In this document: one piece after another, positions 1 to 12,645 of the stretch | How the letters are laid out: every line of letters begins with the position of its first letter | Numbering within the stretch: position 1 is the first letter of the stretch | Source: Candidatus Accumulibacter aalborgensis | GTDB taxonomy: Bacteria; Pseudomonadota; Gammaproteobacteria; Burkholderiales; Rhodocyclaceae | Direction of reading: 5' to 3' | Length of the DNA: 33,871 bases | Assembly (NCBI RefSeq): GCF_900089955.1 | Contig: NZ_FLQX01000103.1 | Span: 1-33,871 of the forward strand | Position numbers and translations under genes: made by a program | Notes under the pieces: generated by a model | The model's database searches: none | Told to the model about the DNA's origin: nothing | Seen by the model: the letters and a program-made list of their open reading frames with translations, nothing else

Positions 1-9
1 CGATTTTCT

Positions 10-35
10 GATTTCCTACAATGAATCAACGACTT
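10..35. repeat. Left arm of an inverted repeat flanking vapBC
   Basis: The plus strand reads GATTTCCTA (10-18), a 7-base spacer, then TCAACGACTT (26-35). Both blocks recur in inverse orientation at 549-576, where AAGTCGTTGA (549-558) and TAGGAAATC (568-576) are separated by 9 bases. The arms enclose the vapB/vapC remnant. They could be ends of a small non-autonomous element or copies of a dispersed intergenic repeat. The arm may extend past the left edge of the window. Confidence 0.5.
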
Positions 36-38
36 AGA

Positions 39-218
39 TCAAGGGCTCCGGGAAGGTCCGTCGAGGCTCCAGCAGAGTTCAGCCAGAACAACGTCCGAAA
101 TAAAGATCGCGCCATCGGTGTCGCTGGCAGCGTCAAAAAGGCCTTGCGCACGCTGGGCCTGATCGTCGTCGTCGCGGGTGAGTAGCCGAACGAGAACGTT
201 CGTGTCTACGGCAATCAC
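39..218 (-). pseudogene. vapC: Truncated VapC-type PIN-domain toxin
   Basis: Reading from a GTG at 218, the product begins with VIAVDTNVLVRLLTRDD, the N-terminal signature of PIN-domain ribonuclease toxins with the first catalytic Asp (residue 5) and the Asn two residues later. A second PIN-like stretch (ISDVVLAELCW) follows, then the frame runs into DGPSRSP and a stop after 59 residues; PIN toxins of this family usually have about 130. The later acidic catalytic residues are therefore missing. The GTG overlaps the stop of the upstream antitoxin gene (GTGA), the usual vapBC coupling. Loss of the C-terminal half suggests an inactive toxin. The break lies next to an inverted-repeat arm at 10-35, so element insertion or deletion is a plausible cause. 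That cause is inference. Confidence 0.7.
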
Positions 219-472
219 GCTGAAGATGGCAGGTTACGCGTACGAGCAGCCTCTGCGATGCCCGCGTCCATTTCCTCGATGCTTAGCGGCGGCCTTGCCG
301 GCTCCTGCAGTAGACCAAACAGGTTTCTCGCCCCGCGGGCAAGGACACGAACGTGCAACGATCCGTCATCCTGGATCTGGAAGTCCAGTTTGCTGCCGGG
401 TGCGATGCCTGCGCGATCACGGATTTCCTTGGGAACCGTGACTTGTCCCTTGTCGGTGACGGTGGCGAGCAT
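215..472 (-). CDS. vapB: AbrB/MazE-type antitoxin (VapB)
   Basis: An 85-residue protein opening with MLATVTDKGQVTVPKEIRDRAG, the SpoVT/AbrB swapped-hairpin DNA-binding fold (about residues 1-45). A variable C-terminal tail (about 46-85, with an acidic SIEEMDAGIAEAA helix) would normally wrap the cognate toxin. VapB-type antitoxins neutralise VapC ribonucleases and repress their own operon. The downstream vapC (stop/start overlap GTGA at 215-218) is truncated, so this is probably an orphan antitoxin whose remaining role, if any, is DNA binding. No palindromic operator as clear as that of the second vapB (12072-12088) was found upstream. Confidence 0.85.
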   Translation of the reverse strand: MLATVTDKGQVTVPKEIRDRAGIAPGSKLDFQIQDDGSLHVRVLARGARNLFGLLQEPARPPLSIEEMDAGIAEAARTRNLPSSA

Positions 473-548
473 CTGACTTCCTTGTAGACCTTGGTGGATG
501 TTTCCGGGTAAGAGCGGTTACGGTAAGAAGTGTAGTGTCAGGTAATGC

Positions 549-576
549 AAGTCGTTGACTAAAAGGATAGGAAATC
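549..576. repeat. Right arm of an inverted repeat flanking vapBC
   Basis: AAGTCGTTGA (549-558) plus TAGGAAATC (568-576) match the reverse complement of 10-35 at 19 bases in two exact blocks, with a spacer of 9 instead of 7 bases. It lies in the 222-base gap between vapB and the end of hsdR, which otherwise holds only a short direct repeat of GTACCCCT (584-591 and 602-609). No transposase gene lies between the arms. Confidence 0.5.
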
Positions 577-694
577 CAACAGCGTACCCCTTGGAGTATA
601 TGTACCCCTGTCAAGTGCTGTCAATGTTCAGTCTGGCTCCCGGATCTCCTGAGAAGTGACCGAATTTCCGCTTTGCTCATTAAGGCAGGGGAAG

Positions 695-3600
695 TCAGAC
701 CCCTTGCGCGTCACCAGTGTCGCTTTGAAATCGGTGATACGCTTCCGACGCCATCCAACCCGTGACGATCTTCTGGAATGGCGCGTCGTTCATGAAGCGC
801 ACGAAAATCTCTTCGTTTTGATCCATGCGCTCAACGAACAATTTTTCCAGCAGGTTCCTGAATACCAGTTCGAACTTGTCACCGGGATTCACTACCGCCG
901 CCTGCCGCAACCCGGCATCGGCCATCGCCGCTTCGACGATCTGATCGAAGAACAGTTGATCCGCCTGGTTGAAGTCGGTACCGAAGCGATCGTTCACCAC
1001 GTCGATGAGTTGCGAGAGTGGAACGGGCTCTGACCGTAGCAGACCGCTGCCGACCTCCGTCGGGCCGTCCAGGCGCCGAGCTTCGCCGTCTTGCAGCGAG
1101 ATGGAGCCCTCGCTGATCTTCTGCAAGCGGTAGTACTCGAGCTGCACTTCATCGTCGAACTGATACGCCGGGCCGTTCTTGCGCCGCGGCAGTTTCGCCG
1201 CGAGGTGGCGGAGAAACACGTACATCCGTTCAAGGTCCGAGTCCTGATACGGAATCACCTGGCTCAAGAAACCATAAAGGTTCAGAAACGCCTGCACCTT
1301 GCCGCGCCACAGCTCAGCCTCTTCCTCGCTGCCCGCCTGCCCATCGCTCTGGCGGAGCGTGAAGCGCGACACCGCTGGATCGAGCGCGGCATTCATGGCC
1401 TGATGATCCATGGCGCTCTGCCGCTGCGTCGCTTTGAAGTACACGTTGCAGAAACGCTCGACCTCATCATCCAGGTAGATCCCGGAGGCATCGATCTCGC
1501 CCTTGATCGCGTACATGCGCGCAGGGTCGACTTCGTCCCCCATGGCAGCTCCTTCGTAATACACCTTGAAGGCCGCGCGAATCTCCTCGCGAGCGTTGAC
1601 GAAGTCGAGAATGAAGGTATCCTCCTTGAGCGGATGAGTCCGGTTCAGTCGTGTCAGTGTCTGGACGGCCTGGATGCCGGCGAGCCGCTTGTCCACAAAC
1701 AGCGTATGCAACAGCGGTTGATCGAAGCCGGTCTGGTACTTCTCGGCGACCAGCAGCACCTGATACTCCTGCGCCGCGAACTTCTCGGGCAACTCCTTCT
1801 CCGAGATGCCGTCGTTCATGCTCACTTCGCTGTAGCTGACATCGGCGAGCTTGTCGTCCTGCACCGTGCCCGAGAAGGCTACCAGCGACTTGATGGCGTA
1901 GCCCTTTTGCCCAATGTATCGGTCGAAGCTCTGCTTGTAGCGCACGGCCTCCAGGCGCGACCCGGTCACCACCATCGCCTTGGCCCGACCGCCGACCTTG
2001 TGCCGGGTGACGGCCTGGAAGTGCTCGACCATGACCTCGGTCTTCTGCGCGACGTTGTGCGGATGCAGGCGCATGAAGCGGGCGAGCGCCTGCGCCGCCT
2101 TCTTGCGCTCGACGTTCGGGTCGTCCTCGCAGGACTTGAGCAGCTTGAAGTAGGTCGCGTAGGTCGTGTAGTGTTTGAGCACATCGAGGATGAAACCCTC
2201 CTCGATTGCCTGGCGCATGGTGTAACGATGCGCGGGCTGGCCGGCGCGTCCAAACACGGCGAGGGTCTTGTACTTGGGAGTTGCCGTGAAGGCGAAAAAG
2301 CTCAGGTTCGCCTGTCGTCCGCGCTTGGCCATGCTGCGGAACAGTTCTGCCAGGTCGTCACGGCCTTCCTCGGTCGCGCGATTCTGCGCTTGTTCCCTGA
2401 GACCTTCGCCGCCGAGAACTTCCTTGAGGTCGGTCGCCGTCTCGCCGCCCTGCGAGCTGTGTGCCTCGTCGATGATGACCGCACACCGCCGTGTGGCCAG
2501 AGTTCCGGTGCCGGAGATGCCGCGCTCCTCAGCCAACTTGAGCAACTGGCGCGAGACGAACGGAAATTTCTGCAGCGTCGTGATGATCACCGGCACCGCA
2601 TTCTCCAGCGCCTCGGCGAGTTGCCGCGAACTCTCGTCGATCCGCTGCACGACCCCCCTCTTGTGCTCGAACTGGTAGATCGTGTCCTGCAGTTGCTGGT
2701 CGAGCACGACGCGGTCGGTGACCACGATCACGCTATCGAAAAGGCGTCGACTGTTCGTGTCGTGCAGCGATGCCAGGCGATGCGTCAGCCAGGCGATGGT
2801 GTTGCTCTTGCCGCTGCCCGCCGAGTGTTCGACAAGGTAGTTCTGGCCCACGCCCTCGCTGCGCGCGGCGTCCACCAGCATGCGCACCGCCTGCAGTTGG
2901 TGGTAGCGCGGGAAGATCATCGATTCCACTTTGACCTTGCGGCCCTGCTCGTCGCGCTTCTCGTCGACCTGCAGGTGGATGAAGCGCGCGAGCAGGTCGA
3001 GGAGGCTGTCCCGTTGCAGTACCTCTTCCCACAGGTAGGCCGTGCGATAGCTGCGACCGGCGGGATCGGGCGGGTTCCCGGCGCCGCCGTCGCAACCCTT
3101 GTTGAAGGGTAGAAAATGCGTCGCCGTACCGGCCAGGCGGGTGGTCATCAGCACCGACTCGGTGTCGGCCGCGAAGTGCACCAGCGTGCGGCGCTTGAAC
3201 TCGAAGATCGGCTCGCGCGGGTCACGGTCCTGCTTGTACTGCTGGCGCGCATCCTCAACCCGCTGGCCGGTGAGCGGGTTCTTCAACTCCACCGTGACCA
3301 CCGGGATGCCGTTCAGGGTCAGCGTGACATCGAGAGACTTTTCGCTGCGCGGCGAGAAGTGAAGCTGACGCGTTAGCCCGAGGCGGTTCGCGGCGTAGCG
3401 CGCTTCCAGCTCCGGGTTCAGCTCGTGCGCTGCCTTGAAGAAAGCCGCATGTAGTGTCCGCCCATAGCACTTGAAGCCGTGGCGCAGCGTCGCGAGCGCG
3501 CCGTTCTGGTCCATCCATTTGCACAGATCGCCGAGAACCTGCTCATCGGTCTTGTCGCCGTGCAGCGCCGCCAGCTTGGCCCACTCCTTCGGTTGCGTCT

Positions 3601-3739
3601 CGCGGATGAAGGCGAGCATCGTTTCGGGGAAGATCGCGCGTTCGCGGTCGAAGCCCTCGCGCGCGATCGGCACATAGCCGTTTTGCAGCAGGTGCGCTTC
3701 GATGACGGTTTCGAAGGAGGCCTCGTTGGTCCGGTTCAC
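695..3739 (-). CDS. hsdR: Type I restriction enzyme R subunit (DNA translocase/endonuclease)
   Basis: A 1014-residue motor and nuclease subunit, the usual length for the family. The N-terminal nuclease domain shows D137 followed by E151-L-K153 in a VTVELKNP context, the PD-(D/E)xK pattern. The SF2 translocase core follows: Walker A HSAGSGKSN (about 305-313), DEAH box VIIDEAHSS (424-427), FFAFTATP (about 481-488), and the motif V/VI region with EKYQTGFDQP and QTLTRLNRTHP. With HsdM and HsdS it should cleave unmethylated DNA after ATP-driven translocation. The start is a GTG that overlaps the stop of the PIN gene by four bases (GTGA). It is the last gene of a seven-gene operon and is separated from hsdS by four genes, an unusual layout. 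All core motifs are intact. Confidence 0.95.
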   Translation of the reverse strand: MNRTNEASFETVIEAHLLQNGYVPIAREGFDRERAIFPETMLAFIRETQPKEWAKLAALHGDKTDEQVLGDLCKWMDQNGALATLRHGFKCYGRTLHAAFFKAAHELNPELEARYAANRLGLTRQLHFSPRSEKSLDVTLTLNGIPVVTVELKNPLTGQRVEDARQQYKQDRDPREPIFEFKRRTLVHFAADTESVLMTTRLAGTATHFLPFNKGCDGGAGNPPDPAGRSYRTAYLWEEVLQRDSLLDLLARFIHLQVDEKRDEQGRKVKVESMIFPRYHQLQAVRMLVDAARSEGVGQNYLVEHSAGSGKSNTIAWLTHRLASLHDTNSRRLFDSVIVVTDRVVLDQQLQDTIYQFEHKRGVVQRIDESSRQLAEALENAVPVIITTLQKFPFVSRQLLKLAEERGISGTGTLATRRCAVIIDEAHSSQGGETATDLKEVLGGEGLREQAQNRATEEGRDDLAELFRSMAKRGRQANLSFFAFTATPKYKTLAVFGRAGQPAHRYTMRQAIEEGFILDVLKHYTTYATYFKLLKSCEDDPNVERKKAAQALARFMRLHPHNVAQKTEVMVEHFQAVTRHKVGGRAKAMVVTGSRLEAVRYKQSFDRYIGQKGYAIKSLVAFSGTVQDDKLADVSYSEVSMNDGISEKELPEKFAAQEYQVLLVAEKYQTGFDQPLLHTLFVDKRLAGIQAVQTLTRLNRTHPLKEDTFILDFVNAREEIRAAFKVYYEGAAMGDEVDPARMYAIKGEIDASGIYLDDEVERFCNVYFKATQRQSAMDHQAMNAALDPAVSRFTLRQSDGQAGSEEEAELWRGKVQAFLNLYGFLSQVIPYQDSDLERMYVFLRHLAAKLPRRKNGPAYQFDDEVQLEYYRLQKISEGSISLQDGEARRLDGPTEVGSGLLRSEPVPLSQLIDVVNDRFGTDFNQADQLFFDQIVEAAMADAGLRQAAVVNPGDKFELVFRNLLEKLFVERMDQNEEIFVRFMNDAPFQKIVTGWMASEAYHRFQSDTGDAQGV

Positions 3740-4230
3740 GGCGCTCCACCCAGTACAAATCGAGCACGCTCGCGCCGTAGCATTTCAAAAGGCGTCAAGC
3801 ACTTGATACCAAGACCAATGCAAGCGTCAGGAATCTTGATCTTGCGCGTCGACGCGGACGGAACCTCGTGGGTAACGACGGTGTGCTGGCCTGCAAGCGC
3901 CTGCGCCACGACGTAGTAGTCCGCCACTTGGAGAAATGTGGCGATCGCAGATTGCTCGTATGACTGACCTGTTGCCCAAGTGCTTACCGCAGCCAGCGAC
4001 GGGAACATGGAAGAATCAGGCCGCAAGAAAAAACCAACCCCGCGCTGCGCCGCCCATTCCGAAAGCGCATCGTCCCCAGCAACGATTTCATCACCAACCT
4101 TCTCGATGCTGAACACACTGCCGGATTGATTGTTCGTCACAAGCCAGTCCCAGAACGCAGGACAAAAGTCGAGCCCGTAATGCAATCGATGCGCCGACAT
4201 GAAGACGTTTGCATCGAGCACATACGCCAT
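3736..4230 (-). CDS. PIN-like protein of the DUF4411 type (putative toxin RNase)
   Basis: A 164-residue protein opening MAYVLDANVFMSAHR, with the D-x-N of a PIN-type nuclease active site (D6, N8). Further acidic positions are in EKVGDEI (about 43-49), and a late QVADYYVVAQAL helix followed by VVTHE resembles the C-terminal catalytic region. Length and layout fit the DUF4411 family, often encoded beside Xre/ImmA-type proteins. The ATG overlaps the stop of the upstream ImmA-like gene (TGATG at 4230), and its stop overlaps the hsdR start (GTGA). It is probably a toxin-like RNase whose partner is the upstream gene; activity and target are inference. Confidence 0.75.
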   Translation of the reverse strand: MAYVLDANVFMSAHRLHYGLDFCPAFWDWLVTNNQSGSVFSIEKVGDEIVAGDDALSEWAAQRGVGFFLRPDSSMFPSLAAVSTWATGQSYEQSAIATFLQVADYYVVAQALAGQHTVVTHEVPSASTRKIKIPDACIGLGIKCLTPFEMLRRERARFVLGGAP

Positions 4231-5372
4231 CAGAAGAGAACCCCGAGCGTTCGTCCGAGCTGGTCGAACGTGGACATCTTCTTGAAGCCGAGCAATCGGA
4301 ATGCTTCGGTGAACGAAGAGCGGCCCTCGAGCGCACTGGTCACTACCGCACGGGCGAAACGTTTACTCGCCCGCGCGCCGACGCTGCGATAGAAGTCACC
4401 ACCGGTACCATGTGCGATTTCACGGAATCGCGCCAGCTCGTGTTCGTATGCCTCCCAATACGTGGCCCCGACGAGCGAGCCAGAATCATGCATACGTCGC
4501 AGAATCACCAACGTGCTCACCTTGAACCGTCGCGCAAGCCGATCAAGCTCGGCGCGCAACTCGAAACCGGGTTCGTGAGCCGCGCGGAACGCCTCCAAAG
4601 GAACCAGCAGCTCGGCGGCGACCTGGTTACACCAACGCTCCACCGCCTGTGCCGGGACCGCGGACGCTTGAGCGTCCGAGAGCGCGGACTCACCGAGCCA
4701 GATGTGCGCAAGTTCGTGCGCCAGCGTGAACATCTGCGCTGCCTTACTGTCGGCGCCATTGATGAACACCAGCGGGGCAAGGTCATCGGCCAGAGCGAAA
4801 CCGCGGAACTCCTGCGGATTGAGCTTGCGCCGGGTGTTACTGCCGACCACACCGCTGACCATGACCAGAACGCCGAGTCTATCGGCCTGCGCGATGAAGC
4901 GTCGCAGCGCCTCGGTCCAGGTTGGCAACTGAGCGCGCGCGTCGAGATCAAAGCCCAGCGCCTTGCGGATGATCCCTGCGGAACGAGCAATGTCGTCGCC
5001 GACACGGATCGACCCCACGAATCGCAGCCGATCATCACCGGCGGATCGAGCGAAATCGCGGTACCAGTCTTGCCGCTGTTGGCACAGATAGACTGTATCC
5101 AGGAGATCCGGACTGGGCTGGCGAACGGTGGTATCAGCGACCATGCGGAAATCAGGAATCGGAACGGCCTCTTGCGGCGGCTCCGCAAGAAACATAAATC
5201 CAACCGGCGTATGCGTTGCCTTCGCGAAATTCTCGAGTTGTTTGAACGTAGGCTGTGCGTCACCGCGCTCCCACTGATCTAGCCGAGGGAACCGCTTGTC
5301 GAAGTAGGCAAGATCGAGCCGAGAGCGTTCGCGCGCCCACGTCAACATCGCTGGTCGGATTTCAACTCGCAT
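4230..5372 (-). CDS. Xre-like/ImmA-IrrE family metallo-endopeptidase
   Basis: A 380-residue protein. The N-terminus (about 1-65) resembles an Xre-type helix-turn-helix segment (AMLTWARERS, then LDQWERGDAQPTFKQLENFAK). A C-terminal half carries the zinc-peptidase motif HELAHIWLGE (H219, E220, H223) followed by a VAAELLVP helix, as in ImmA/IrrE proteins (COG2856). Such proteins usually cleave or bind a repressor or antitoxin under stress. The start chosen is ATG 5372, which shares one base with the stop of the ptuB-like gene (TGATG); an in-frame start 51 bases upstream would lie inside that gene. It is directly followed by the DUF4411-type PIN gene, a pairing that suggests a toxin-antitoxin-like module. 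The regulatory target is unknown. Confidence 0.85.
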   Translation of the reverse strand: MRVEIRPAMLTWARERSRLDLAYFDKRFPRLDQWERGDAQPTFKQLENFAKATHTPVGFMFLAEPPQEAVPIPDFRMVADTTVRQPSPDLLDTVYLCQQRQDWYRDFARSAGDDRLRFVGSIRVGDDIARSAGIIRKALGFDLDARAQLPTWTEALRRFIAQADRLGVLVMVSGVVGSNTRRKLNPQEFRGFALADDLAPLVFINGADSKAAQMFTLAHELAHIWLGESALSDAQASAVPAQAVERWCNQVAAELLVPLEAFRAAHEPGFELRAELDRLARRFKVSTLVILRRMHDSGSLVGATYWEAYEHELARFREIAHGTGGDFYRSVGARASKRFARAVVTSALEGRSSFTEAFRLLGFKKMSTFDQLGRTLGVLF

Positions 5373-6019
5373 CACGTCATCTTCGCAAGTTTCTGCCCGA
5401 GCCACCACACGGCAACCGAGCAATAGGGTGCGATCTGACCGTTGCCGGCGATGTACTTGTCGCGTTCCCGTACTAATCGCTCGCGAGGCACGGGGCCGCC
5501 GATCCGCGCCTTCTCACGCCTCCACCAGTCGAGGACGGCGTCGAGGAGGCCTTTCCTGTTGTTCTTCAGCAGGGGAAGATTGAGGTTCAGCACTTGGTGC
5601 AACTGATCATCGAACACGGCGTCATCCGCGCGGATCGAGCCATCCAGTTCGTACCGGACGCGTGTCTCGATGTGGTGCGCCGCGTCAGCGGGGTTCCACT
5701 GAAGATCGCTGTCACCCTTCCGAGCGTCGCAGTGCTGCAGGTGAGGCGGTTGCCCGTTACCGCCGAGACAGGCACCGAGCAGATTCCGGTAGTTGAGATG
5801 CTCGTCGGGGTAGCGGGACTGGCACCGCCAATGCTCAATCTTCATGGTCGTCGGCCCGTTGTGGAGCCGGCCCATGCAGTAGCAGCATAGGCCGCGCCGC
5901 TCGGTAACGAGCGTATGCCGAAGATCGTCTTTCGATGCATAGTTGTCATAGTCGCTGTGCGGCATCTGGCGATGCGCGGTCAGGCTCGCCGGTTCAGCAC
6001 CCTTGACGATCTGCCTCAC
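5372..6019 (-). CDS. ptuB: HNH endonuclease of the PtuB/TIGR02646 type
   Basis: A 215-residue protein with C45-x2-C48 (GLCCYCMGRL), then KIEHWRCQS (E62, H63), the asparagine-rich LNYRNLLGACLGGNG, and HCDARKGD (H96, C97). This is the layout of small zinc-binding HNH nucleases of the TIGR02646/PtuB kind. In Septu defence systems PtuB is the nuclease partner of the PtuA ATPase. The GTG start overlaps the ptuA-like stop by four bases (GTGA), so equal-level coupled synthesis is likely. It sits in a type I restriction operon, where it may act as a second nuclease triggered when restriction fails; that link is inference. An effector from a retron-linked ATPase/HNH pair is an alternative, but no reverse transcriptase is nearby. 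Confidence 0.8.
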   Translation of the reverse strand: MRQIVKGAEPASLTAHRQMPHSDYDNYASKDDLRHTLVTERRGLCCYCMGRLHNGPTTMKIEHWRCQSRYPDEHLNYRNLLGACLGGNGQPPHLQHCDARKGDSDLQWNPADAAHHIETRVRYELDGSIRADDAVFDDQLHQVLNLNLPLLKNNRKGLLDAVLDWWRREKARIGGPVPRERLVRERDKYIAGNGQIAPYCSVAVWWLGQKLAKMT

Positions 6020-7269
6020 GGCTCACCCTCCATGAAGTCGAGGAGGGTTCTGATCCGGGTGACCTCAGGATCGTCCTCGCCCAGCTTGCCGACGAGTTGG
6101 ACCAGCAGACCACGGGCACTCCCGTATCGCTGCTTTCCAACCTCCTGCGAGATCTGCGAGAGCAGTGCGTTGATCTCCTGGGCGCGCGGGTCGGCGTCCA
6201 TGATTTCTTCGAGCACACGGCTCGAGTCGACCCCAAACGAATGGGTCGGCGAGTAGACCTGGCCGTCCGCGATGATCTGAATGCGGTCGTGCTCGACCTC
6301 GCCGATGACCTGCGGCGAGTGCGTTGTTGCGATGAATTGGCAGCGCGGAAATGCCGCCGTGAGGTTGCGAACGATCTGCCGCTGCCACTTTGGGTGCAGG
6401 TGCAGATCGATCTCGTCAATCAGCACGACGGCTTCCGCCTCGACAGCGGGGTCGGTCATCTCTGGGTTGGCCTGGGCGAGACGCCGCGTCAGGTCGAGCA
6501 CCAGTGCCAGCGTGCCTCGCTCACCGTCCGACAACTGTCGAACGGCAACAGTGGTGCTGCCGTGATCGATCAGCAACCGCGGGCGCTCGTCGCCGTCCAC
6601 TCTCAGATGGGCGTACCCCGGGAGGAATCGGGTTACCGCATCATCGAAGGCTGCAAGCGCGTGCCCGGCCGAAGCCCGTTCCGACTTCAGAGCTTCCTGG
6701 ACTCGCATCCACGCCGCGAACTCGCTCAGCCGAAGCTCGCGATTCGCGAAAGCATCCGCGAAAGCCGCGGCGATCCCGCCGACAGCCACGTTCTTCCCCG
6801 GCGCGCGCTCGGACGGCACCGCCCGATTGGTCGAGAACAGCACCGCCAGCGGCCGTCCTCCGGGCTCTCTACCTGTCACCGGCCTGGGAGCGGCGCCGAG
6901 GAACGTGGCCTTTTCGGGCGTGTTGTGTACCTGCTCGCGCGGCATGCCCGCCTTCTTCTCCTGCCGCGCACTGGACTCCCGCGGCTTGTGAATCAGGTAG
7001 TGATACTCCGATCCGCCGATCTGTACGCCACATTCGATACTCAGCGCATCCGCGCCCACCCGGATGTCGTCAACGGCGAACAACTCAACCGGCGCGCGGA
7101 GCTTGTTCGCTTGCTTTGCGAAGGCCGAGAGACACACACGAAGCGCATCGAGCATGCTGGTCTTGCCGACGCCGTTGACACCGACGATCAGGTTGAACCC
7201 CGGCTGAAAACGAAACTCGGCCGCCTCGATCGCGCGAAGGTTGGCGAGCTTGAGTGCGGTGACTCTCAT
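6016..7269 (-). CDS. ptuA: AAA/ABC-type ATPase of the PtuA type (Septu-like)
   Basis: A 417-residue SMC/OLD-like ATPase without a long coiled coil. It has Walker A GVNGVGKTS (about 30-38), the ABC signature LSDGERG (246-252), Walker B VVLIDEIDLHLHP (281-293) and H-loop ATTHSPQ (314-320). The N-terminal MRVTALKLANLRAIEAAEF is typical of this group. Paired with the HNH gene directly downstream (GTGA overlap), it fits the PtuA component of Septu anti-phage systems, which sequesters and controls the PtuB nuclease. The ATG overlaps the hsdS stop (ATGA at 7266-7269). No TOPRIM domain is visible, arguing against a true OLD nuclease. All nucleotide-binding motifs are intact. Confidence 0.85.
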   Translation of the reverse strand: MRVTALKLANLRAIEAAEFRFQPGFNLIVGVNGVGKTSMLDALRVCLSAFAKQANKLRAPVELFAVDDIRVGADALSIECGVQIGGSEYHYLIHKPRESSARQEKKAGMPREQVHNTPEKATFLGAAPRPVTGREPGGRPLAVLFSTNRAVPSERAPGKNVAVGGIAAAFADAFANRELRLSEFAAWMRVQEALKSERASAGHALAAFDDAVTRFLPGYAHLRVDGDERPRLLIDHGSTTVAVRQLSDGERGTLALVLDLTRRLAQANPEMTDPAVEAEAVVLIDEIDLHLHPKWQRQIVRNLTAAFPRCQFIATTHSPQVIGEVEHDRIQIIADGQVYSPTHSFGVDSSRVLEEIMDADPRAQEINALLSQISQEVGKQRYGSARGLLVQLVGKLGEDDPEVTRIRTLLDFMEGEP

Positions 7270-8432
7270 GCCGCGCTCTCAACATTGATCTGCCCCGTCA
7301 CGACTGCGGCGATGAGTGCGGCGCGGCGCTCCTTGAGCAGGGTGGTCGAGCGTTCCGTCGCGATACGCAGCTTGTCGATCTTCTTGGTCTCGACCGCTAT
7401 GTGGGCGACGATTGCTCGCTGCTCGCTGAGCGAAGGCACTGGCAGAAAGACCTCGAAGAAACCCTCGGGATAGAGGCGCAGCCGCGATGACCACACGCCC
7501 TTGGAATATCGAGTGACCTCCTGAGCAAAAACGGGTAGGCGCACCAGTGCATCGAGGTAACTCGGTTCCAGTCGATCGCCTGGCTCATAGACATTGTAAG
7601 CCGGGCTTGCGATTCCATCGACCGGTGACACGCCCATAGCGCCCATCCATGCCCACAGTGTGTTGATCACAAGATCGCCGGTGAGACAGATCTTGTACCC
7701 CTCAGTTGTCTCCGCCTCGAACATGTTGACGTCTTTCTCGGAACGTGGAGTGACGCCAGTGAGGTGCGACACAGTGAGGAGTTCTTCCTCGCCCGTGGCT
7801 GAACGCTGATCGCGTTCCTTGAACAACCATCGCGTGCGTTCAGTCTCCCAAGGCGCCGGAATCTCACCGAGCCAGGGGATGCCGGAGTCGCGGAGGGGGG
7901 CACGGGGGTCGAGGCCGCGGGTGACGGCGCGGGTGATGAGCGCCCGGCGCTTCTCGGCCAACAGCCCGAGCAGCCGCTCCTTCGCCGCCACCAGCGCATC
8001 CAGCCGCGCCGTCTCGCGGTCGAGGTAGTCGGCGATGGCGCGTTGCTGCGGGACCGGAGGGACAAGAACATGTCTGCTGTAGGCCGACTCACGATTTAGG
8101 CCGGGAACTGCGGCTTCGTCGGTCCCTTCATCCAGACGCAATGTCTGGAGAAGCCAGAAGATCCAGCGGAGGTGGTTCTCGCTAGTCGACTCGTCTACGA
8201 AGAAGGTCGTATCGGACGCGTAGCACGGCTCCGGCGTCCAGTTGACCTTGCCATAGGAGCCCTTTCGTCCAACGACGATTGCCGGCGCTCCAGTGTTGGC
8301 TCGTGAGAAAGAAGCGAACGGTCCGTTGGAGCCAAAGACCTGGAACGGGCCGTCCTGAACTTCATCAGTTGGCAACGCGTCGCCATACCCGAAGCGAGCG
8401 ACGAACTTCAGTTTGGCCTTCGGCCACGTCAC
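7266..8432 (-). CDS. hsdS: Type I restriction-modification specificity subunit
   Basis: A 388-residue DNA-recognition subunit with two target-recognition domains, each followed by a conserved helical spacer. The first spacer (about 124-195) includes VPQQRAIADYLDRETARLDALV and ends in the RDSGIPWLGEIPAPW motif that opens the second half. The second (about 338-388) contains LSEQRAIVAHIAVETKKIDKL and a similar RRAALI helix. HsdS sets the recognition site and positions two HsdM subunits. The first recognition domain is rather short (about 120 residues) but looks intact. The GTG start overlaps the hsdM stop (GTGA at 8429-8432). The DNA target cannot be read from sequence alone. Confidence 0.93.
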   Translation of the reverse strand: MTWPKAKLKFVARFGYGDALPTDEVQDGPFQVFGSNGPFASFSRANTGAPAIVVGRKGSYGKVNWTPEPCYASDTTFFVDESTSENHLRWIFWLLQTLRLDEGTDEAAVPGLNRESAYSRHVLVPPVPQQRAIADYLDRETARLDALVAAKERLLGLLAEKRRALITRAVTRGLDPRAPLRDSGIPWLGEIPAPWETERTRWLFKERDQRSATGEEELLTVSHLTGVTPRSEKDVNMFEAETTEGYKICLTGDLVINTLWAWMGAMGVSPVDGIASPAYNVYEPGDRLEPSYLDALVRLPVFAQEVTRYSKGVWSSRLRLYPEGFFEVFLPVPSLSEQRAIVAHIAVETKKIDKLRIATERSTTLLKERRAALIAAVVTGQINVESAA

Positions 8433-10453
8433 TCCGTCACCTCCCGCAGCAAGCGCATGATTTCCTCCTCCGCCTGCTCCAGCTCTGCATCAATCTCCTC
8501 CAGCGGCCGCGGTGGCGTGTACCTGTAGAAGTGTCGGTTGAAGTTGATCTCGTAGCCAACCTTGTCCTTGGCTCGGTCCATCCAGGCGTCGGGCACGTGC
8601 GGACGCACCTCGCGCTTGAAGTAGGCGTCGATGTCGTCCTTGAGCGGCACGTTCTCGAAATCGCGCAGGTCGGCGTCCGGCTCATAGCCTTCGTCGCGCC
8701 CGCCCTTGGCGACCGGCTCGGCCTCGGGGTCCTTGTGCGTGAAGACGCTGCGGAAGAGCTTCTGCTCGGTCGCCTTCCAGCGCGATTTGCGCAGGCGCAG
8801 CAAGTCCTCGATGCGGCGCCACAGCGCATTCCAGTCGCGCTGCGGCTCGCGGCCGAGCGCCTTGTCGATCGCCTGCACGTCATCGAGCAGGTGCGGGCAC
8901 GCGTCAAGGAAACGGGCCTTGTCTTCGAGCGTCATCCGGTAGCGCAGGCGTAGGGGCCGCTCGACGGTGACGCGGGTGTAGCCGAAGTCGGCGTTGTCGA
9001 AGGTTTTGGATGTCTCGCCGTCGGTCCGCTGGCCGTAGAGCCTGACGATTGCGGCGATCTGCGTGTCGGTGATGTGCCGGCGCTTGTCGCCGAGGCTGCG
9101 CTTGCTGTCCTCGCTGCCGCCCGCGGTCCACACGTTGCGTGCATCCAGGAGCTGGATTTTGCCCCTGCGCTGCTCCTCCTTGCGGTTGGTGACGATCCAG
9201 ACGTAGGTGCCGATGCCGGTGTTGTAGAACATCTGCTCCGGCAAAGCGATGATCGCTTCGAGCCAGTCGTTCTCGATGACCCACTTGCGGATGTCACTCT
9301 CGCCCGAGCCGGCGCCGCCGGTGAACAGCGGCGAGCCGCTGAAGACGATGGCGAGCCGCGACCCTTGCCTGTGTAGTGCCGGGCGGACGGGTTCGAACTT
9401 GTCAACCATGTGCTGCAGGAAGAGCAGCGAGCCGTCGTTGACACGCGGAAGCCCGGCGCCGAAGCGACCGTCGAAGCCACACCTGTCGCGCTCCTGCACG
9501 ATGGCCTTCTGCTGCTTCTTCCAGTCCACGCCGAAGGGCGGATTGGTGAGGAAGTAATCGAAGGTCTCGCCAGCGAACTGGTCGTCGGTGAAGCTGTCGC
9601 CGTAGCGGACGTTGTTGCCGGCGCCGTTGTGGTCTACCTGCTTCATCAGCATGTCGGACGCCGCGGTGGCGAAAGCGCGCTTGTTGTAGTCCTGCCCGTA
9701 GACGTAGAGCCTCGCCGCGCCGTGATGCTCGCGCAGGTAGTTCTGCGCCTCGGCCAGCATGCCGCCGGTGCCGCAGGCCGGGTCGAGCAGCTTGCGCACG
9801 GTGCCGGGGGTGGCGAGCAATGGGTCGTCGTCGATGAACAGGAGGCTCACCATCAGCCGGATGACCTCGCGCGGCGTGAAGTGGTCGCCCGCGGTCTCGT
9901 TGGCCAGTTCGTTGAAGCGCCGGATGAGGTTCTCGAAGATGAGCCCCATCTGCTCGTTGGGCACCGTTTTCGGGTGCAGGTCTACGTCGCAGAACTTGGT
10001 GACGACGAGGTAGAGGATGTTCGCCTCGCGCATCCGCTCGATCTCGTTCTCGAACTCGAAGAAGTCGAAGATGTCGCGCACGTTCTTCGAGAAGCCCTTG
10101 ATGTAGCTGACGAGGTGTTTTTCGATATGGTCGGGGTCGCCCTTCAGCTTCTCGAAGTCGAGTGGCGAGTGGTTGTGGAAACGCTGACCGGCAACGTCGT
10201 TGAGCCGGCTGTCGAGTGCGTCACCTTCGAGCTTGCCGCCTCTTCGTACTTCGTACTCGGCCAGAACCCTTGCCTTGGTGGGTGCGAGCACACAGTCGAA
10301 GCGCCGCAGCACGGTCATCGGCAGCATGACGCGCTCGTACTGCGGCGGACGGTAGGGGCCGCGCAGGAGATCGGCAATCTGCCAGATCAGCGTGGAGAAG
10401 TAATTGTGGTCAGGCACCGATGCGGTTCGCTTCAGGTTGGCGATGGTGGACAA
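8429..10453 (-). CDS. hsdM: Type I restriction-modification N6-adenine methyltransferase
   Basis: A 674-residue methyltransferase, first gene of the defence operon. It has the N-terminal HsdM bundle (FSTLIWQIADLLRGPY, about 19-34), HFTPREVIRLMVSLL (about 191-205), SAM-binding motif I LLDPACGTGGML (222-233) and catalytic NPPF (304-307). It should methylate adenine at the site read by HsdS and form the M2S methylase. The frame opens with TTG at 10453; a GTG at 10417, just before PDHNYFS, is an alternative, and neither has a strong Shine-Dalgarno sequence. The C-terminal extension after about residue 480 includes a charged region and ends in a predicted helix (PLEEIDAELEQAEEEIMRLLREV) likely to contact HsdS. 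Confidence 0.95.
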   Translation of the reverse strand: MSTIANLKRTASVPDHNYFSTLIWQIADLLRGPYRPPQYERVMLPMTVLRRFDCVLAPTKARVLAEYEVRRGGKLEGDALDSRLNDVAGQRFHNHSPLDFEKLKGDPDHIEKHLVSYIKGFSKNVRDIFDFFEFENEIERMREANILYLVVTKFCDVDLHPKTVPNEQMGLIFENLIRRFNELANETAGDHFTPREVIRLMVSLLFIDDDPLLATPGTVRKLLDPACGTGGMLAEAQNYLREHHGAARLYVYGQDYNKRAFATAASDMLMKQVDHNGAGNNVRYGDSFTDDQFAGETFDYFLTNPPFGVDWKKQQKAIVQERDRCGFDGRFGAGLPRVNDGSLLFLQHMVDKFEPVRPALHRQGSRLAIVFSGSPLFTGGAGSGESDIRKWVIENDWLEAIIALPEQMFYNTGIGTYVWIVTNRKEEQRRGKIQLLDARNVWTAGGSEDSKRSLGDKRRHITDTQIAAIVRLYGQRTDGETSKTFDNADFGYTRVTVERPLRLRYRMTLEDKARFLDACPHLLDDVQAIDKALGREPQRDWNALWRRIEDLLRLRKSRWKATEQKLFRSVFTHKDPEAEPVAKGGRDEGYEPDADLRDFENVPLKDDIDAYFKREVRPHVPDAWMDRAKDKVGYEINFNRHFYRYTPPRPLEEIDAELEQAEEEIMRLLREVTE

Positions 10454-10601
10454 AGTGCGCCAACCGGAAGTGAGGAATCCCTGGTGGCCGGTTATGGCGT
10501 GTCTTGAAAAGTCATGACCGTTTGGAGGTCAGCCGCCTGTGGACTGGTCCGTGAGCGCTTCGGGACCGGCACCCTGTTCCTTGCCGAGCGTGGCCCGGCC
10601 T
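10454..10601. other. Gap between yqjK-like gene and hsdM
   Basis: This 148-base gap should carry the promoter of the defence operon (read leftward) and the end of the yqjK-like gene. A short dyad TGACC-N7-GGTCA lies at 10515-10531. No convincing -35/-10 pair or U-tailed terminator hairpin could be recognised. Confidence 0.35.
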
Positions 10602-10922
10602 TTACGGGCGAGACGACAGGCCGGCAGCGAAAAGCTCGCCGCGAAGCAGGCGCCAGGTACGCCAGGCAAAGAGACCCCGTTGGGTCCATCGCCACATGCG
10701 GTTGGGTTTCAGCACGACCAGCACGAGAACGGTCGCCGCGACCAGTTCAGGGTGTTGCCTGACGTAATCGGCGCCGTTGCGCACGACGGAAACTGCTCTG
10801 TCGGCGCCCTGCAAGGCGCTGCTCAGCGGTTGCAGTTGTTGGCCGAGGAGTTGGCGCTGCGTGCTGATCCGCTCGATCAGCCGGCCGCGTTCGACGGCCA
10901 GGTCAAGCAGAGCCTGATTCAT
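10602..10922 (-). CDS. yqjK: YqjK-like protein
   Basis: A 106-residue protein starting MNQALLDLAVERGRLIERISTQR, matching the YqjK pattern of an N-terminal basic/acidic helix rich in Arg-Gly-x-Leu, then a hydrophobic segment (PELVAATVLVLVVLKP, about 57-72) and a basic C-terminus. ATG 10922 was preferred over one 39 bases upstream because it gives the family-typical N-terminus and only a 20-base overlap with the yqjE-like gene. It is third in the yqjD-yqjE-yqjK cluster; function is unknown, possibly envelope or stress related. Confidence 0.7.
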   Translation of the reverse strand: MNQALLDLAVERGRLIERISTQRQLLGQQLQPLSSALQGADRAVSVVRNGADYVRQHPELVAATVLVLVVLKPNRMWRWTQRGLFAWRTWRLLRGELFAAGLSSRP

Positions 10923-11313
10923 TGCCGGCAGTGCCTTTGAGCTGACGAAGGTCTTCTTCAAGTTCGGCGATGCTGGCCGCGAACAGACGCTCGGGTGTGT
11001 GCATGGCCCGCCTGAGAGCGAAGTAGCAGAGAGCGGAAACCGTCAGGAAGAGCGCGCTGAAGCCGCCCAGGAGGGCAGCTCGTTGGTCCCAGAACACGAC
11101 GATCAGCAGGGCGATGGCCAAGACGAGGCCAACCGCCAGACAGAATGCCATCGCCTGCGACAAGAGCAGCAGACGAACGGCCCGCAGCTTCTCCTCCTTG
11201 ATTTCATTGCCGAGGAGTTCGAACCGCGTCCGTCCGGTGGCCAGCAGTGTTGCGGCGACGCTTCTGGTGGCGGAGAACAGTCCGCCGCGACCGCTGCCGG
11301 GACGTTCATCCAT
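10903..11313 (-). CDS. yqjE: YqjE-like phage-holin-superfamily membrane protein
   Basis: A 136-residue protein with a cytoplasmic N-terminus (about 1-50), two adjacent membrane spans (about 52-74, AMAFCLAVGLVLAIALLIVVF, and about 80-100, LLGGFSALFLTVSALCYFAL) and a charged C-terminal helix (LFAASIAELEEDLRQLKG). This is the YqjE/Holin_9 layout: small inner-membrane proteins often encoded with YqjD and YqjK. The start has an AAGGAG about 12 bases upstream. The gene lies 15 bases after the yqjD-like gene in the same direction. Despite the superfamily name, nothing suggests phage lysis. Confidence 0.8.
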   Translation of the reverse strand: MDERPGSGRGGLFSATRSVAATLLATGRTRFELLGNEIKEEKLRAVRLLLLSQAMAFCLAVGLVLAIALLIVVFWDQRAALLGGFSALFLTVSALCYFALRRAMHTPERLFAASIAELEEDLRQLKGTAGNESGSA

Positions 11314-11328
11314 GGAGCACGCCGCTCC

Positions 11329-11649
11329 TTAGCGGCGGCCGATGATCACGCCGAGCAGCAGACCGATGGCGGCCGCCACGCCGACCGCGCGCCACGGATT
11401 TTCGTGAACGAAATCATCGGTGGCACGGGCAGCGGCCTTGGTTCTGTCTACCAGCGCAGCTTCGGCATCGGCCAGGCGGAGCTTGGCATCGCGCAGGCGC
11501 TCGCCGATACGTTCGCGCAGATCGCCCATCTTGTCGCCGGCAACGCCAGCGGTGGCGCGCAGGATTTCCTCTGCGTCGGCGACCACGACCTTCATGTCGG
11601 AGACGAGTTTCTGTTTGTTGGCGTTGGAAAGTTCGGTAACTTCGGACAT
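11329..11649 (-). CDS. yqjD: ElaB/YqjD/DUF883 membrane-anchored protein
   Basis: A 106-residue protein: a long amphipathic helix (about 5-75, with the DAEEILRATAGVAGDK motif typical of DUF883), a short VHENPWRAVGVAAAIGLLLGVIIGRR ending that forms one C-terminal membrane anchor, and a final Arg-Arg. E. coli YqjD and ElaB are C-tail-anchored inner-membrane proteins that bind stationary-phase ribosomes. ATG 11649 is chosen over one 12 bases upstream because GAGG sits 7 bases before it. It is first of the three-gene yqj cluster. Confidence 0.85.
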   Translation of the reverse strand: MSEVTELSNANKQKLVSDMKVVVADAEEILRATAGVAGDKMGDLRERIGERLRDAKLRLADAEAALVDRTKAAARATDDFVHENPWRAVGVAAAIGLLLGVIIGRR

Positions 11650-11752
11650 GATGGACCTCACAGTGGATGATGATGACGGGAAGATCGCTGGTGCAGCAGC
11701 AAGGACGCCTTCTTCAACGAAGCGTTCAGATTATAGAAATCGCGGACGAAGA

Positions 11753-11800
11753 TCAATGCAAACGATGAATGCAGATGTTGGTGTCGAGCATGTAGCGCAT
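11753..11800 (-). pseudogene. vapC: 15-codon remnant of a second VapC PIN toxin
   Basis: Three bases after the vapB stop, an ATG opens MRYMLDTNICIHRLH and then a stop. The first 11 residues are the classic VapC/FitB PIN opening with the first catalytic Asp and Asn. The rest of the roughly 130-residue toxin is absent; the sequence passes straight into the spacer upstream of the yqjD-like gene. This is a deletion remnant and cannot be a working toxin. Confidence 0.75.
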
Positions 11801-11803
11801 TGT

Positions 11804-12052
11804 TCAGCGGGCGATCGTGTTCCAGTCACGCTCGCGCTGATCGTGGATCTCGCGTCCGTCAGCCATGAAATCCGACGGAAAACCCGCGAGAGCGGTGCCC
11901 AGCCCGGCCAAGGTCTTTTTGTTCACGGGACGGACAACGAGTGTGTCGCCGACGCGCTCGATGTCGACCTCCTGGCTGGGGTCGACAATGGCGAGTTCGC
12001 GGGGAATGCGGACGGCAAGCGAGTTGCCGCTCCTGAAGACCTTGGTCAACAT
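11804..12052 (-). CDS. vapB: AbrB-type antitoxin VapB, orphan
   Basis: An 82-residue protein opening MLTKVFRSGNSLAVRIPRELA, the SpoVT/AbrB-like fold of VapB antitoxins (about 1-45). The C-terminal tail (SDFMADGREIHDQRERDW) is the usual toxin-binding and proteolysis-prone region. The ATG at 12052 is used because it gives the family N-terminus; the frame stays open upstream through the promoter without family similarity. Its vapC partner is cut to 15 codons, yet the antitoxin and its palindromic operator look complete, so it may persist as an orphan that protects against related VapC toxins or regulates in trans. That role is inference. Confidence 0.85.
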   Translation of the reverse strand: MLTKVFRSGNSLAVRIPRELAIVDPSQEVDIERVGDTLVVRPVNKKTLAGLGTALAGFPSDFMADGREIHDQRERDWNTIAR

Positions 12053-12071
12053 GCCTGCCTCTTGAGAACGA

Positions 12072-12088
12072 GTATATACAGTATATAC
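12072..12088. promoter_or_regulatory. Palindromic operator upstream of second vapB
   Basis: Two copies of the self-complementary octamer GTATATAC (12072-12079 and 12081-12088) are separated by one base, forming a 17-base dyad 20 bases before the vapB ATG. The AT-rich block probably also contains the -10 element. It fits a site bound by the AbrB-fold dimer of VapB for autorepression. Confidence 0.65.
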
Positions 12089-12093
12089 AAGAA

Positions 12094-12108
12094 GCCCCTG
12101 GTCGGGGC
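12094..12108 (-). terminator. Possible weak terminator after the hyf/ehr operon
   Basis: On the minus strand GCCCC-GACCA-GGGGC is followed by TTCTTGT, 13 bases beyond the hyfI stop. The stem is only 5 bp and the U-tract is poor, so termination may be partial and readthrough into vapB is possible. Confidence 0.35.
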
Positions 12109-12120
12109 GCAGTGCCGACT

Positions 12121-12645
12121 TTACTCCGGCCCCACCCGACACCGCCGCACCGCCGTCAATATCCCGCGCAGGATTTCGAGGGGCGGCGGCGGACAGCCGG
12201 GAACCGCAATGTCCACCGGAATGACGTTGGCCACGCGCCCGCAACTCGCGTAGCTCTCGCCGAAAATGCCGCCGTTGCAACCGCAATCGCCGACCGCAAC
12301 GACCAGCTTGGGCCCCGGGGTGGCGTCATAGGTGCGCCGCAAGGCCAGTTCCATGTTCCTCGAAACGGGTCCGGTGACCAGCAGCATGTCGGCGTGGCGC
12401 GGGCTGGCGACGAATTTGATTCCCAGCCCCTCGATGTTGTAGTACGGGTTGTTCAGCGCGTTGATTTCGAGTTCGCAGCCGTTGCACGAGCCGGCATCGA
12501 CCTGGCGAATGGTCAGCGCCTGGCCGAGAATGGCGAGAAGTTCACGCTGCATGTGCTCGCCTTCGACGCGCAGCGAATCGCTGTTCTCGGGCGGCGCCTC
12601 GCTGCGGATGCCGTTGCCTGCGATCTGTTTGAGGATGCGCCACAT
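12121..12645 (-). CDS. hyfI: NuoB/HyfI-like small subunit of an Ehr-type complex
   Basis: A 174-residue iron-sulfur subunit homologous to NuoB and to group 4 [NiFe]-hydrogenase small subunits (HyfI/HycG). Four cysteines positioned for a single [4Fe-4S] cluster are visible: SC54NGC57ELE, GDC121GCNGG and PGC151PPPP. Within the complex it should carry electrons next to the large subunit. The ATG shares one base with the stop of the large-subunit gene (TGATG at 12645). It is the last gene of the operon. The cluster ligands are intact even though the large subunit lacks the NiFe ligands, so electron transfer may persist with a different redox partner. Confidence 0.88.
   Translation of the reverse strand: MWRILKQIAGNGIRSEAPPENSDSLRVEGEHMQRELLAILGQALTIRQVDAGSCNGCELEINALNNPYYNIEGLGIKFVASPRHADMLLVTGPVSRNMELALRRTYDATPGPKLVVAVGDCGCNGGIFGESYASCGRVANVIPVDIAVPGCPPPPLEILRGILTAVRRCRVGPE

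What the first reader, a model, noticed from the sequence alone, without database searches (positions are those of the whole stretch)
695..10453. Type I restriction operon carrying a Septu-like ATPase/HNH pair between hsdS and hsdR
Seen: hsdM, hsdS, ptuA-like, ptuB-like, immA-like, PIN and hsdR are on one strand, each joined to the next by a 1- or 4-base stop/start overlap, so all seven are probably one mRNA with coupled translation. Known: in E. coli the PrrC anticodon nuclease gene sits in a type I operon and is held silent by the restriction complex until a phage anti-restriction peptide releases it; Septu uses a PtuA ATPase and a PtuB HNH nuclease. Inference: the pair here may be a back-up nuclease guarded by, or sensing failure of, the restriction complex.
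Basis: partly seen in the sequence, partly recalled or inferred. Interest (0 to 1): 0.78.

Follow-up and report, generated by a model that had tools for sequence, protein, structure and literature searches.

The report
Restriction operon with built-in Septu nuclease
A bacterial DNA-restriction operon carries a second phage-defence pair (Septu) between two of its genes; in related operons the pair's ATPase has been inherited with the restriction genes, while its cutting half has been swapped like a plug-in part.

Summary
Observation confirmed. Seven same-strand genes (hsdM, hsdS, ptuA, ptuB, ImmA peptidase, DUF4411 PIN, hsdR) overlap by 4,4,4,1,1,4 bases. PtuA/PtuB match Septu models at 3e-115 and 2e-70. 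The seven-gene order was found only here, but hsdM-hsdS-ptuA-ptuB-hsdR recurs in 13 of 17 loci of one HsdR clade (11 of 15 found through HsdR alone) and in 0 of 52 fetched loci with HsdR below 57% identity. Two other type I families also have PtuA there. ImmA-PIN is a separate guest: L161 has it without PtuAB. PtuA's ATPase core tracks HsdR (r 0.88) while its tail tracks PtuB (r 0.84); tail plus ptuB has been exchanged as one cassette, at least 4 changes on the HsdR tree. Best reading: a type I restriction-Septu composite giving two-layer defence with interchangeable effectors. A PrrC-like guard is neither shown nor excluded. Defence genes between hsdS and hsdR are published (DarTG2, TgvAB); my searches found no paper on Septu there or on the exchange. 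New variant of a known kind.

The parts
8429..10453 (-). hsdM, type I methyltransferase subunit (likely true start GTG at 10417)
   Evidence: Pfam HsdM_N 5e-25, N6_Mtase 1e-52; PADLOC PDLC03029 1.5e-258
7266..8432 (-). hsdS, specificity subunit
   Evidence: PADLOC Specificity_I 1e-76; Pfam Methylase_S below its cut-off
6298..7269 (-). ptuA, ATPase core (residues 1-324), co-inherited with hsdR
   Evidence: PDLC00271 3e-115 for the whole protein; HsdR-core Mantel r 0.877; one clade 99/95
6016..6297 (-). ptuA, C-terminal tail (residues 325-417, mostly helical), exchanged together with ptuB
   Evidence: break at residues 323-332 in 4 of 4 pairs of unlike PtuB type tested, three of which share L134; helices from residue 349 in the model
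5372..6019 (-). ptuB, HNH nuclease, W type
   Evidence: PDLC00322 2e-70; W clade 96/94
4230..5372 (-). ImmA/IrrE-like M78 metallopeptidase, first gene of an independent two-gene module
   Evidence: PF06114 8e-22; same pair without PtuAB in L161, stand-alone on plasmids L021, L022
3736..4230 (-). DUF4411 PIN-type putative RNase, second gene of that module
   Evidence: PF14367 2e-52; invariant D6, E48, D104, E122
695..3739 (-). hsdR, type I translocase-endonuclease
   Evidence: TIGR00348 9e-57 (below its cut-off); Pfam HSDR_N, SWI2_SNF2

Best explanation
[quoted passage not shown] SHOWN by sequence: gene content and overlaps; a PtuA core that tracks HsdR; a PtuA tail + PtuB unit replaced as one block between conserved flanks; independent coming and going of the ImmA-PIN pair. 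INFERRED: one mRNA with coupled translation keeps PtuA and PtuB in proportion to Hsd. The Hsd complex methylates self and cuts unmodified phage DNA. PtuAB is the second layer, an ATPase that holds an HNH nuclease until a phage that survives restriction triggers it. The PtuA core is the fixed switch, the tail is the dock for PtuB, and swapping tail + PtuB changes what is cut while keeping the switch and the restriction partner. The window's W-type PtuB is nearest by PDB sequence search to the retron Ec83 HNH protein, so DNA or a substrate other than tRNA-Tyr is at least as likely as tRNA. ImmA-DUF4411 most likely acts as an add-on toxin module (PIN RNase with its peptidase partner).
For: Same order hsdM-hsdS-ptuA-ptuB-hsdR in 13 of 17 clade loci, 11 of 15 found by HsdR search alone, 10 of 14 without the window (searches; annotation 22, 49, 54, 62, 78, 79), against 0 of 52 fetched loci with HsdR at or below 56.2% identity. 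hsdS/ptuA overlap by 4 nt in 13 of 13 (ATGA printed for 12; L153 worked out from ORF coordinates). PtuA of this operon is one clade, 99/95, apart from 12 rows without type I neighbours and 2 family-2 rows. HsdR-PtuA Mantel r 0.87, p 1e-4. HsdR-core r 0.877 and tail-PtuB r 0.84 (both p 1e-4), but HsdR-PtuB r 0.17 (p 0.10) and core-PtuB r 0.14 (p 0.14). DNA identity L018/L134: 73-96% up to ptuA +960, 28-53% to the hsdR start, then 58-88%. At least 4 cassette changes on the HsdR tree. PtuB types W and K1 each have a relative outside type I operons next to them (100/99 and 84/88). Core and C-terminal helices are separated in the model.
Against: No expression, phage or binding data. Co-inheritance may reflect physical linkage rather than function, and such blocks also arise from homologous recombination in conserved flanks. 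Four of 17 clade loci lack PtuAB and use other cargo, so the RM half does not need it. The two blocks are not perfectly separate: HsdR-tail r 0.34 (p 0.015), core-tail r 0.28 (p 0.026), whole PtuA-PtuB r 0.36 (p 0.012); and within W type PtuB does follow HsdR (r 0.79, p 5e-4, n 8; K types together r 0.86, p 0.07, n 5). Mantel p-values treat related rows as exchangeable. L135 breaks the pattern: its PtuA before residue 245 is 36% like that of L154 although their HsdR are 83% alike. The break (323-332) lies about 10-20 residues before the low-confidence linker of the model (341-360), not exactly on it. No sigma-70-like promoter was found before hsdM either, so the single transcript is inferred from overlaps only.
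Confidence: 0.6

Rival explanations
1. PrrC-like guard: PtuA (core) binds the Hsd complex, which keeps PtuAB silent; a phage anti-restriction protein that blocks or remodels Hsd releases PtuAB to nick DNA or cut tRNA and abort infection. (Overlaps with the best explanation; odds are not exclusive.)
For: prrC is embedded in a type IC operon and fires on inhibition of it (PMC12707154, passage). PtuAB is toxic alone and neutralised by the retron in Eco7, where it depletes tRNA-Tyr; Septu EcB88 also cleaves tRNA-Tyr (PMC11555353, PMC13096335, passages). PtuA core co-inherits with HsdR while the effector is swapped, as expected if the core, not PtuB, faces Hsd.
Against: A cloned two-gene Septu protects E. 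coli (whether that host made Hsd proteins was not in the passages). HsdR relatives at 87-89% identity carry other cargo or no PtuAB. PtuA also sits in unrelated type I families and beside BREX genes, so no single Hsd surface is needed. PrrC's fused ATPase-nuclease is absent. W-type PtuB is nearest in PDB to the Ec83 HNH (8e-4), then Septu PtuB (2e-3), with Ec78/Eco7 entries at 0.09 to 0.42; retron-Eco4 (Ec83) was said likely not to target tRNA.
Confidence: 0.22
2. Passive cargo hotspot: the hsdS/hsdR junction simply tolerates insertions; PtuAB, ImmA-PIN, OLD-like, Dam/AlbA and AAA-protease genes are unrelated guests that share a promoter and nothing else.
For: Near-identical RM backbones carry different cargo (L065, L066, L161, window). 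Published embedded pairs TgvAB and DarTG2 use this slot, and TgvAB acted without HsdR nuclease activity (PMC11411939, passages). The RptR paper calls the site a potential hotspot.
Against: Random turnover predicts mixed PtuA lineages; instead the PtuA core is one clade that follows HsdR, kept in 13 of 17.
Confidence: 0.22
3. ATP-use coupling: PtuA bound to ATP keeps PtuB off (recalled from the Septu structure paper); HsdR translocation burns ATP on unmodified phage DNA and so licenses PtuAB when restriction is under way, rather than when it fails.
For: Both halves are ATPases in one gene run; ATP inhibition of PtuAB is recalled, not read (not held).
Against: No sequence evidence separates this from simple co-expression; PtuAB pairs also occur away from hsdR.
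Confidence: 0.06

Closest known systems
Septu type I (PtuA-PtuB)
   Same: Adjacent AAA_21 ATPase and HNH genes, PADLOC PtuA1/PtuB1 at 3e-115 and 2e-70; PtuA fold match.
   Different: Sits inside a type I RM operon; PtuA core forms its own clade; tail + PtuB exchanged as a cassette.
E. coli prrC in the EcoprrI type IC operon
   Same: An ATPase/nuclease function embedded in a type I operon (PMC12707154, passage; the hsdS-hsdR position is recalled, and the PrrC170 set in PMC11555353 is listed as HsdR, HsdS, PrrC, HsdM).
   Different: Two proteins (ATPase + HNH) instead of one PrrC; control by Hsd unproven.
RRDM island: DarTG2 between hsdS and hsdR in EPEC (PMC12255303, passages)
   Same: Second defence module in the same slot of a type I operon.
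   Different: DarTG2 toxin-antitoxin, RptR regulator and M48 peptidase instead of Septu.
TgvAB embedded in the V. cholerae VPI-2 type I operon (PMC11411939, passages)
   Same: Two-gene defence system between hsd genes.
   Different: GmrSD-like modification-dependent system; no Septu.
Type I-A retrons Ec78/Eco7 and Ec83/Eco4 (PtuAB effectors)
   Same: Homologous PtuA and PtuB; with Septu, their solved structures are the best hits.
   Different: No reverse transcriptase among the genes scanned and no retron RNA in Rfam at window 1-13000.
Septu beside Hma (PADLOC 2021, PMC8565338, passages)
   Same: Septu type I frequently beside another methylase-containing system.
   Different: Hma is a helicase-methylase-ATPase system, not type I RM.

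Membership tests
Type I restriction-modification | hsdM, hsdS and hsdR genes with motor and endonuclease domains | tested here: met
Type I restriction-modification | methylates and restricts a specific site | not testable with these tools
   needs methylome and plating data
Septu type I | adjacent PtuA ATPase and PtuB HNH genes | tested here: met
   PADLOC models 3e-115 and 2e-70; PtuA structure match
Septu type I | protects against phage | not testable with these tools
   no experiment
Type I-A retron | reverse transcriptase and msr-msd beside ptuAB | tested here: not met
   no RT among the operon genes scanned; no retron RNA in Rfam on 1-13000
PrrC anticodon nuclease | single PrrC protein (ATPase fused to nuclease) | tested here: not met
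   two proteins; no PrrC model among the 25 PADLOC hits shown (of 166) for the ATPase or (of 30) for PtuB, nor among the NCBIfam hits
PrrC anticodon nuclease | gene embedded in a type I operon | tested here: met
   that prrC itself lies between hsdS and hsdR is recalled
PrrC anticodon nuclease | held silent by Hsd, freed by anti-restriction peptide | not testable with these tools
   needs bench work
PIN-type toxin (DUF4411) | DUF4411 match with conserved PIN acidic residues | tested here: met
PIN-type toxin (DUF4411) | PIN fold | tested here: inconclusive
   model of 3 aligned rows failed, pLDDT 43.7

The most novel reading that the evidence does not exclude
A restriction-guarded plug-in weapon: the PtuA core is a dedicated fourth partner of this type I enzyme that senses failure or engagement of the Hsd complex, and the PtuA tail + PtuB is an interchangeable warhead, so that lineages keep the sensor and change the molecule attacked, outrunning phage counter-measures such as phage tRNAs.
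Probability: 0.22. Interest if true: 0.82.

Novelty: new variant of a known kind. Interest (0 to 1): 0.6.

Why it matters
It turns a one-genome oddity into a recurrent composite system with a natural experiment built in: RM backbones 87-89% alike (HsdR) with and without PtuAB, and similar PtuA cores with three unlike effector cassettes. That makes two open questions directly testable: whether type I enzymes guard nucleases other than PrrC, and what decides the target of PtuAB (DNA or tRNA).

Tried and rejected
Retron reading: rejected, no RT among the scanned genes, no retron RNA (four weak hits, none to a retron, all below gathering score). Seven-part machine: rejected, modules separate. PtuB in viral contigs: no pattern match. 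HsdR in phage records: 3 matches at E 1e-100, all below 60% identity. A search with PtuB alone found 6 of 369 genomes and missed the K2-type PtuB of G256 and G304, so HsdR and a PtuA profile were used instead. DUF4411 fold: useless model, not searched further. Close E. coli copies of the family-2 pair: none by megablast; distant blastn found partial matches in 187 of 5426 genomes, none covering 80% (one read). Promoters: on the minus strand one sigma-70-like site, at 624-595, downstream of hsdR; none before hsdM.

What was and was not fetched: of 53 HsdR rows, the window and 40 others were read with upstream DNA, 12 were not; of 33 rows, 4 were already held, 16 were fetched, 13 were not; the rows not fetched had 32-52% identity. 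All rows were held. Of 762 plasmid records four neighbourhoods were read; of 43 DUF4411 plasmid records three.

Rows dropped or altered before counts: L063 and L064 were found through PtuA and are kept out of the 11 of 15; four K. vulgare plasmid records counted once; L015 and L024 left out of the core/tail comparison; L162 and L163 gave no PtuB row; L153 PtuA trimmed to the conserved start; for HsdR with a stop inside (L136) only the best piece was used. L023 (HsdR about 22%) was HMM-scanned but is not in the 52. Of the 52, L097 shows under 300 bases upstream of hsdR, so its slot is unseen, and some others are cut by contig ends. The HMMs were seeded partly with the positives. No formal test of tree congruence was run; the match of trees is by eye plus the Mantel tests.

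Papers: PMC12255303, PMC11411939, PMC13096335, PMC11555353, PMC8565338, PMC11980606, PMC12707154, PMC13273310, PMC8790059: matching passages only. The Payne 2024 preprint and the PtuAB structure paper: not held, seen as citations or recalled. 'Not in print' rests on searches of an open-access library (listings only, except the papers above); most subscription papers and preprints are not in it.

Full report
OBSERVATION. On the minus strand seven genes run hsdM (10453-8429), hsdS (8432-7266), ptuA (7269-6016), ptuB (6019-5372), immA (5372-4230), DUF4411 (4230-3736), hsdR (3739-695) with overlaps 4, 4, 4, 1, 1, 4 nt. PtuA and PtuB score best with PADLOC Septu models PDLC00271 and PDLC00322; the retron Ec78 models of NCBIfam match below their cut-offs. 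Homologues suggest hsdM starts at GTG 10417.

RECURRENCE. HsdR was searched in 369 genomes of the class (47 with E <= 1e-60), 398 of the phylum (30 with E <= 1e-200), 337 of the class of G526 (6 with E <= 1e-250), 120 of the order (2 with E <= 1e-250) and in plasmids (762 records with E <= 1e-50); the genome sets overlap. In the list (67 fetched loci) identity to the window's HsdR falls from 67.9% straight to 56.2%: 15 rows above, 52 below. Adding the window and L161 gives a clade of 17. PtuAB lies between hsdS and hsdR in 13 of 17: window, L018 (Ketogulonicigenium vulgare plasmid), L063 (Roseovarius), L064 (Devosia MAG), L067, L068, L131, L133, L134, L135, L152, L153, L154. L063 and L064 came from a PtuA scan; without them it is 11 of 15, and without the window as well 10 of 14. 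Several members are close kin (L018, L133, L134, L153: HsdR 88-93% alike), so these counts are not independent. None of the 52 other loci has ptuB by HMM at E <= 1e-5; two have weak ATPase hits only (L087, L076), and L065 inside the clade a third. The four clade loci without PtuAB carry an OLD-like ATPase (L065), a D12 methylase with an AlbA/Fic-like gene (L066), an AAA + subtilase pair (L132) or ImmA-DUF4411 (L161).

MODULES. L161 (HsdR 87.5%) has hsdS-immA-DUF4411-hsdR with 4, 1, 4 nt junctions and no PtuAB; its ImmA and PIN are 70% and 65% identical to the window's. L072 (HsdR 50%) also has an ImmA-DUF4411 pair before hsdR. Acetobacter vaccinii has the pair in an unrelated type I operon, and Sphingomonas and Croceicoccus plasmids have it without one. 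L131 has PtuAB followed by the AAA + subtilase pair, and its near twin L132 has only the latter. L152 has PtuAB followed by an antitoxin-like gene and a broken PIN-like gene, named by eye. In these loci PtuAB sits next to hsdS, and other guests lie between ptuB and hsdR.

OTHER FAMILIES. Enterobacter sp. MGH 14 has hsdM-hsdS-ptuA-ptuB-hsdR with HsdR of PADLOC model PDLC03041. G038 (L026) has ptuA-ptuB-hsdR of the same type, but its contig ends before any hsdS. G056 (L178) has a PtuA and a 130-aa gene of no Pfam family between a weakly matching hsdS-like gene and an EcoEI-type HsdR. A PtuA profile, itself seeded mostly with embedded rows, found 12 PtuA in 9 of 369 class genomes at E <= 1e-45: 5 in type I operons (one of them L026, judged by hsdR alone), 1 beside BREX PglZ/BrxL, 1 beside DUF6079/methylase/helicase, 1 beside a C5 methylase, 4 with none of these adjacent.

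INHERITANCE. The PtuA of this operon is one clade (99/95) among 27 rows. By eye its main splits match the HsdR tree: L067, L068, L135 and L154 against the rest, window with L152, and L131 beside the Roseovarius-Devosia-Ketogulonicigenium group; L153, L063 and L064 move within that group. PtuAB presence needs at least 4 changes on the HsdR tree, which fits one gain and three losses or replacements. HsdR and PtuA distances correlate (r 0.87, p 1e-4); HsdR and PtuB over all 13 loci do not (r 0.17, p 0.09 to 0.10). Within W-type loci alone PtuB does follow HsdR (r 0.79, p 5e-4, n 8), so the mismatch comes from exchange between types.

CASSETTE. PtuB falls into W (8 loci), K1 (3) and K2 (2). In 4 of 4 tested pairs of unlike type, PtuA identity drops at residues 323-332 (for example 89% to 27% for L018/L134, 0 of 500 shuffles as strong); three of these pairs share L134. 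Of four same-type pairs, two show no significant change (win/L152, L063/L134), one a milder drop at 328 (L018/L133, 79% to 56%) and one a different change at 245 (L135/L154, 36% to 78%). Split at residue 324: HsdR-core r 0.877, tail-PtuB r 0.84, core-PtuB r 0.14, but also HsdR-tail r 0.34 (p 0.015) and core-tail r 0.28 (p 0.026), so separation is strong, not complete. Mean identity of same-type versus unlike-type pairs is 44% against 27% for tails and 49% against 27% for PtuB, but 47% against 49% for cores and 74% against 75% for HsdR. At DNA level the replaced block runs from about ptuA +960 to the hsdR start, with conserved flanks (L018/L134 and L133/L134; L068/L154 is less sharp). W has a relative outside type I operons at 100/99 and K1 one at 84/88, so cassettes probably come from the wider Septu pool. 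The model has a low-confidence stretch at residues 341-360, shortly after the break, before four C-terminal helices. That the tail docks PtuB is inference.

MECHANISM. Committed reading: co-expressed two-layer defence with a fixed PtuA switch and a changeable effector. The target is open: PtuAB of retron-Eco7 and Septu EcB88 hit tRNA-Tyr, retron-Eco4 is said likely not to hit tRNA, and Septu of ATCC25922 is reported to act on DNA (PMC13096335, PMC11555353, passages). The window's PtuB is nearest to Ec83 (Eco4) by PDB sequence search (E 8e-4), then Septu PtuB (2e-3), with Ec78/Eco7 entries at 0.09 to 0.42; all are weak. A PrrC-like guard stays possible and is the bold case.

KNOWN CONTEXT. Defence genes embedded in type I operons are published: prrC (its exact slot recalled), DarTG2 and another gene pair between hsdS and hsdR, TgvAB and RloF. 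'Guilt by embedding' is an established idea. Septu beside Hma is published. Septu inside type I operons and the tail-PtuB exchange were not found in my searches (listed in Tried and rejected).

Noticed in passing
window 1-624: Downstream of hsdR on the same strand: a sigma-70-like site (624-595, 11 of 12 matches), an AbrB/MazE-type antitoxin gene (472-215) and a VapC-like PIN gene (by eye) that ends early, so the toxin half looks broken.
   Followed up: partly
own genome G000: 22 stretches match the N6_Mtase family in one 4.7 Mb genome (some are pieces of one gene), so the host may carry many restriction systems.
   Followed up: no
L131 3567-7182, L132 3913-7522: An AAA ATPase + subtilase (S8) pair sits between hsdS (or ptuB) and hsdR in two related loci: a possible further embedded defence module.
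   Followed up: partly
L031 5882-12314: A PtuA-PtuB pair directly upstream of BREX PglZ and BrxL genes, with a 4-base ptuB/pglZ overlap.
   Followed up: partly
L178 6196-11466: A PtuA-like ATPase between an hsdS-like gene and an EcoEI-type hsdR is followed not by a recognisable PtuB but by a 130-aa protein of no Pfam family.
   Followed up: partly
L135 8402-9772: PtuA of L135 and L154 are 36% alike before residue 245 and 78% after it, a second kind of break inside the ATPase part.
   Followed up: no
L066 5903-10932: RM backbone with HsdR 89% like the window's has a D12 adenine methylase, two ORFs of no Pfam family and an AlbA/Fic-like gene in the slot.
   Followed up: no
L181 6572-8573: A relative of the Enterobacter embedded PtuAB lies on its own between smrB and fimbrial genes in one E. 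coli chromosome read (187 of 5426 genomes match part of the query): a possible natural control.
   Followed up: partly
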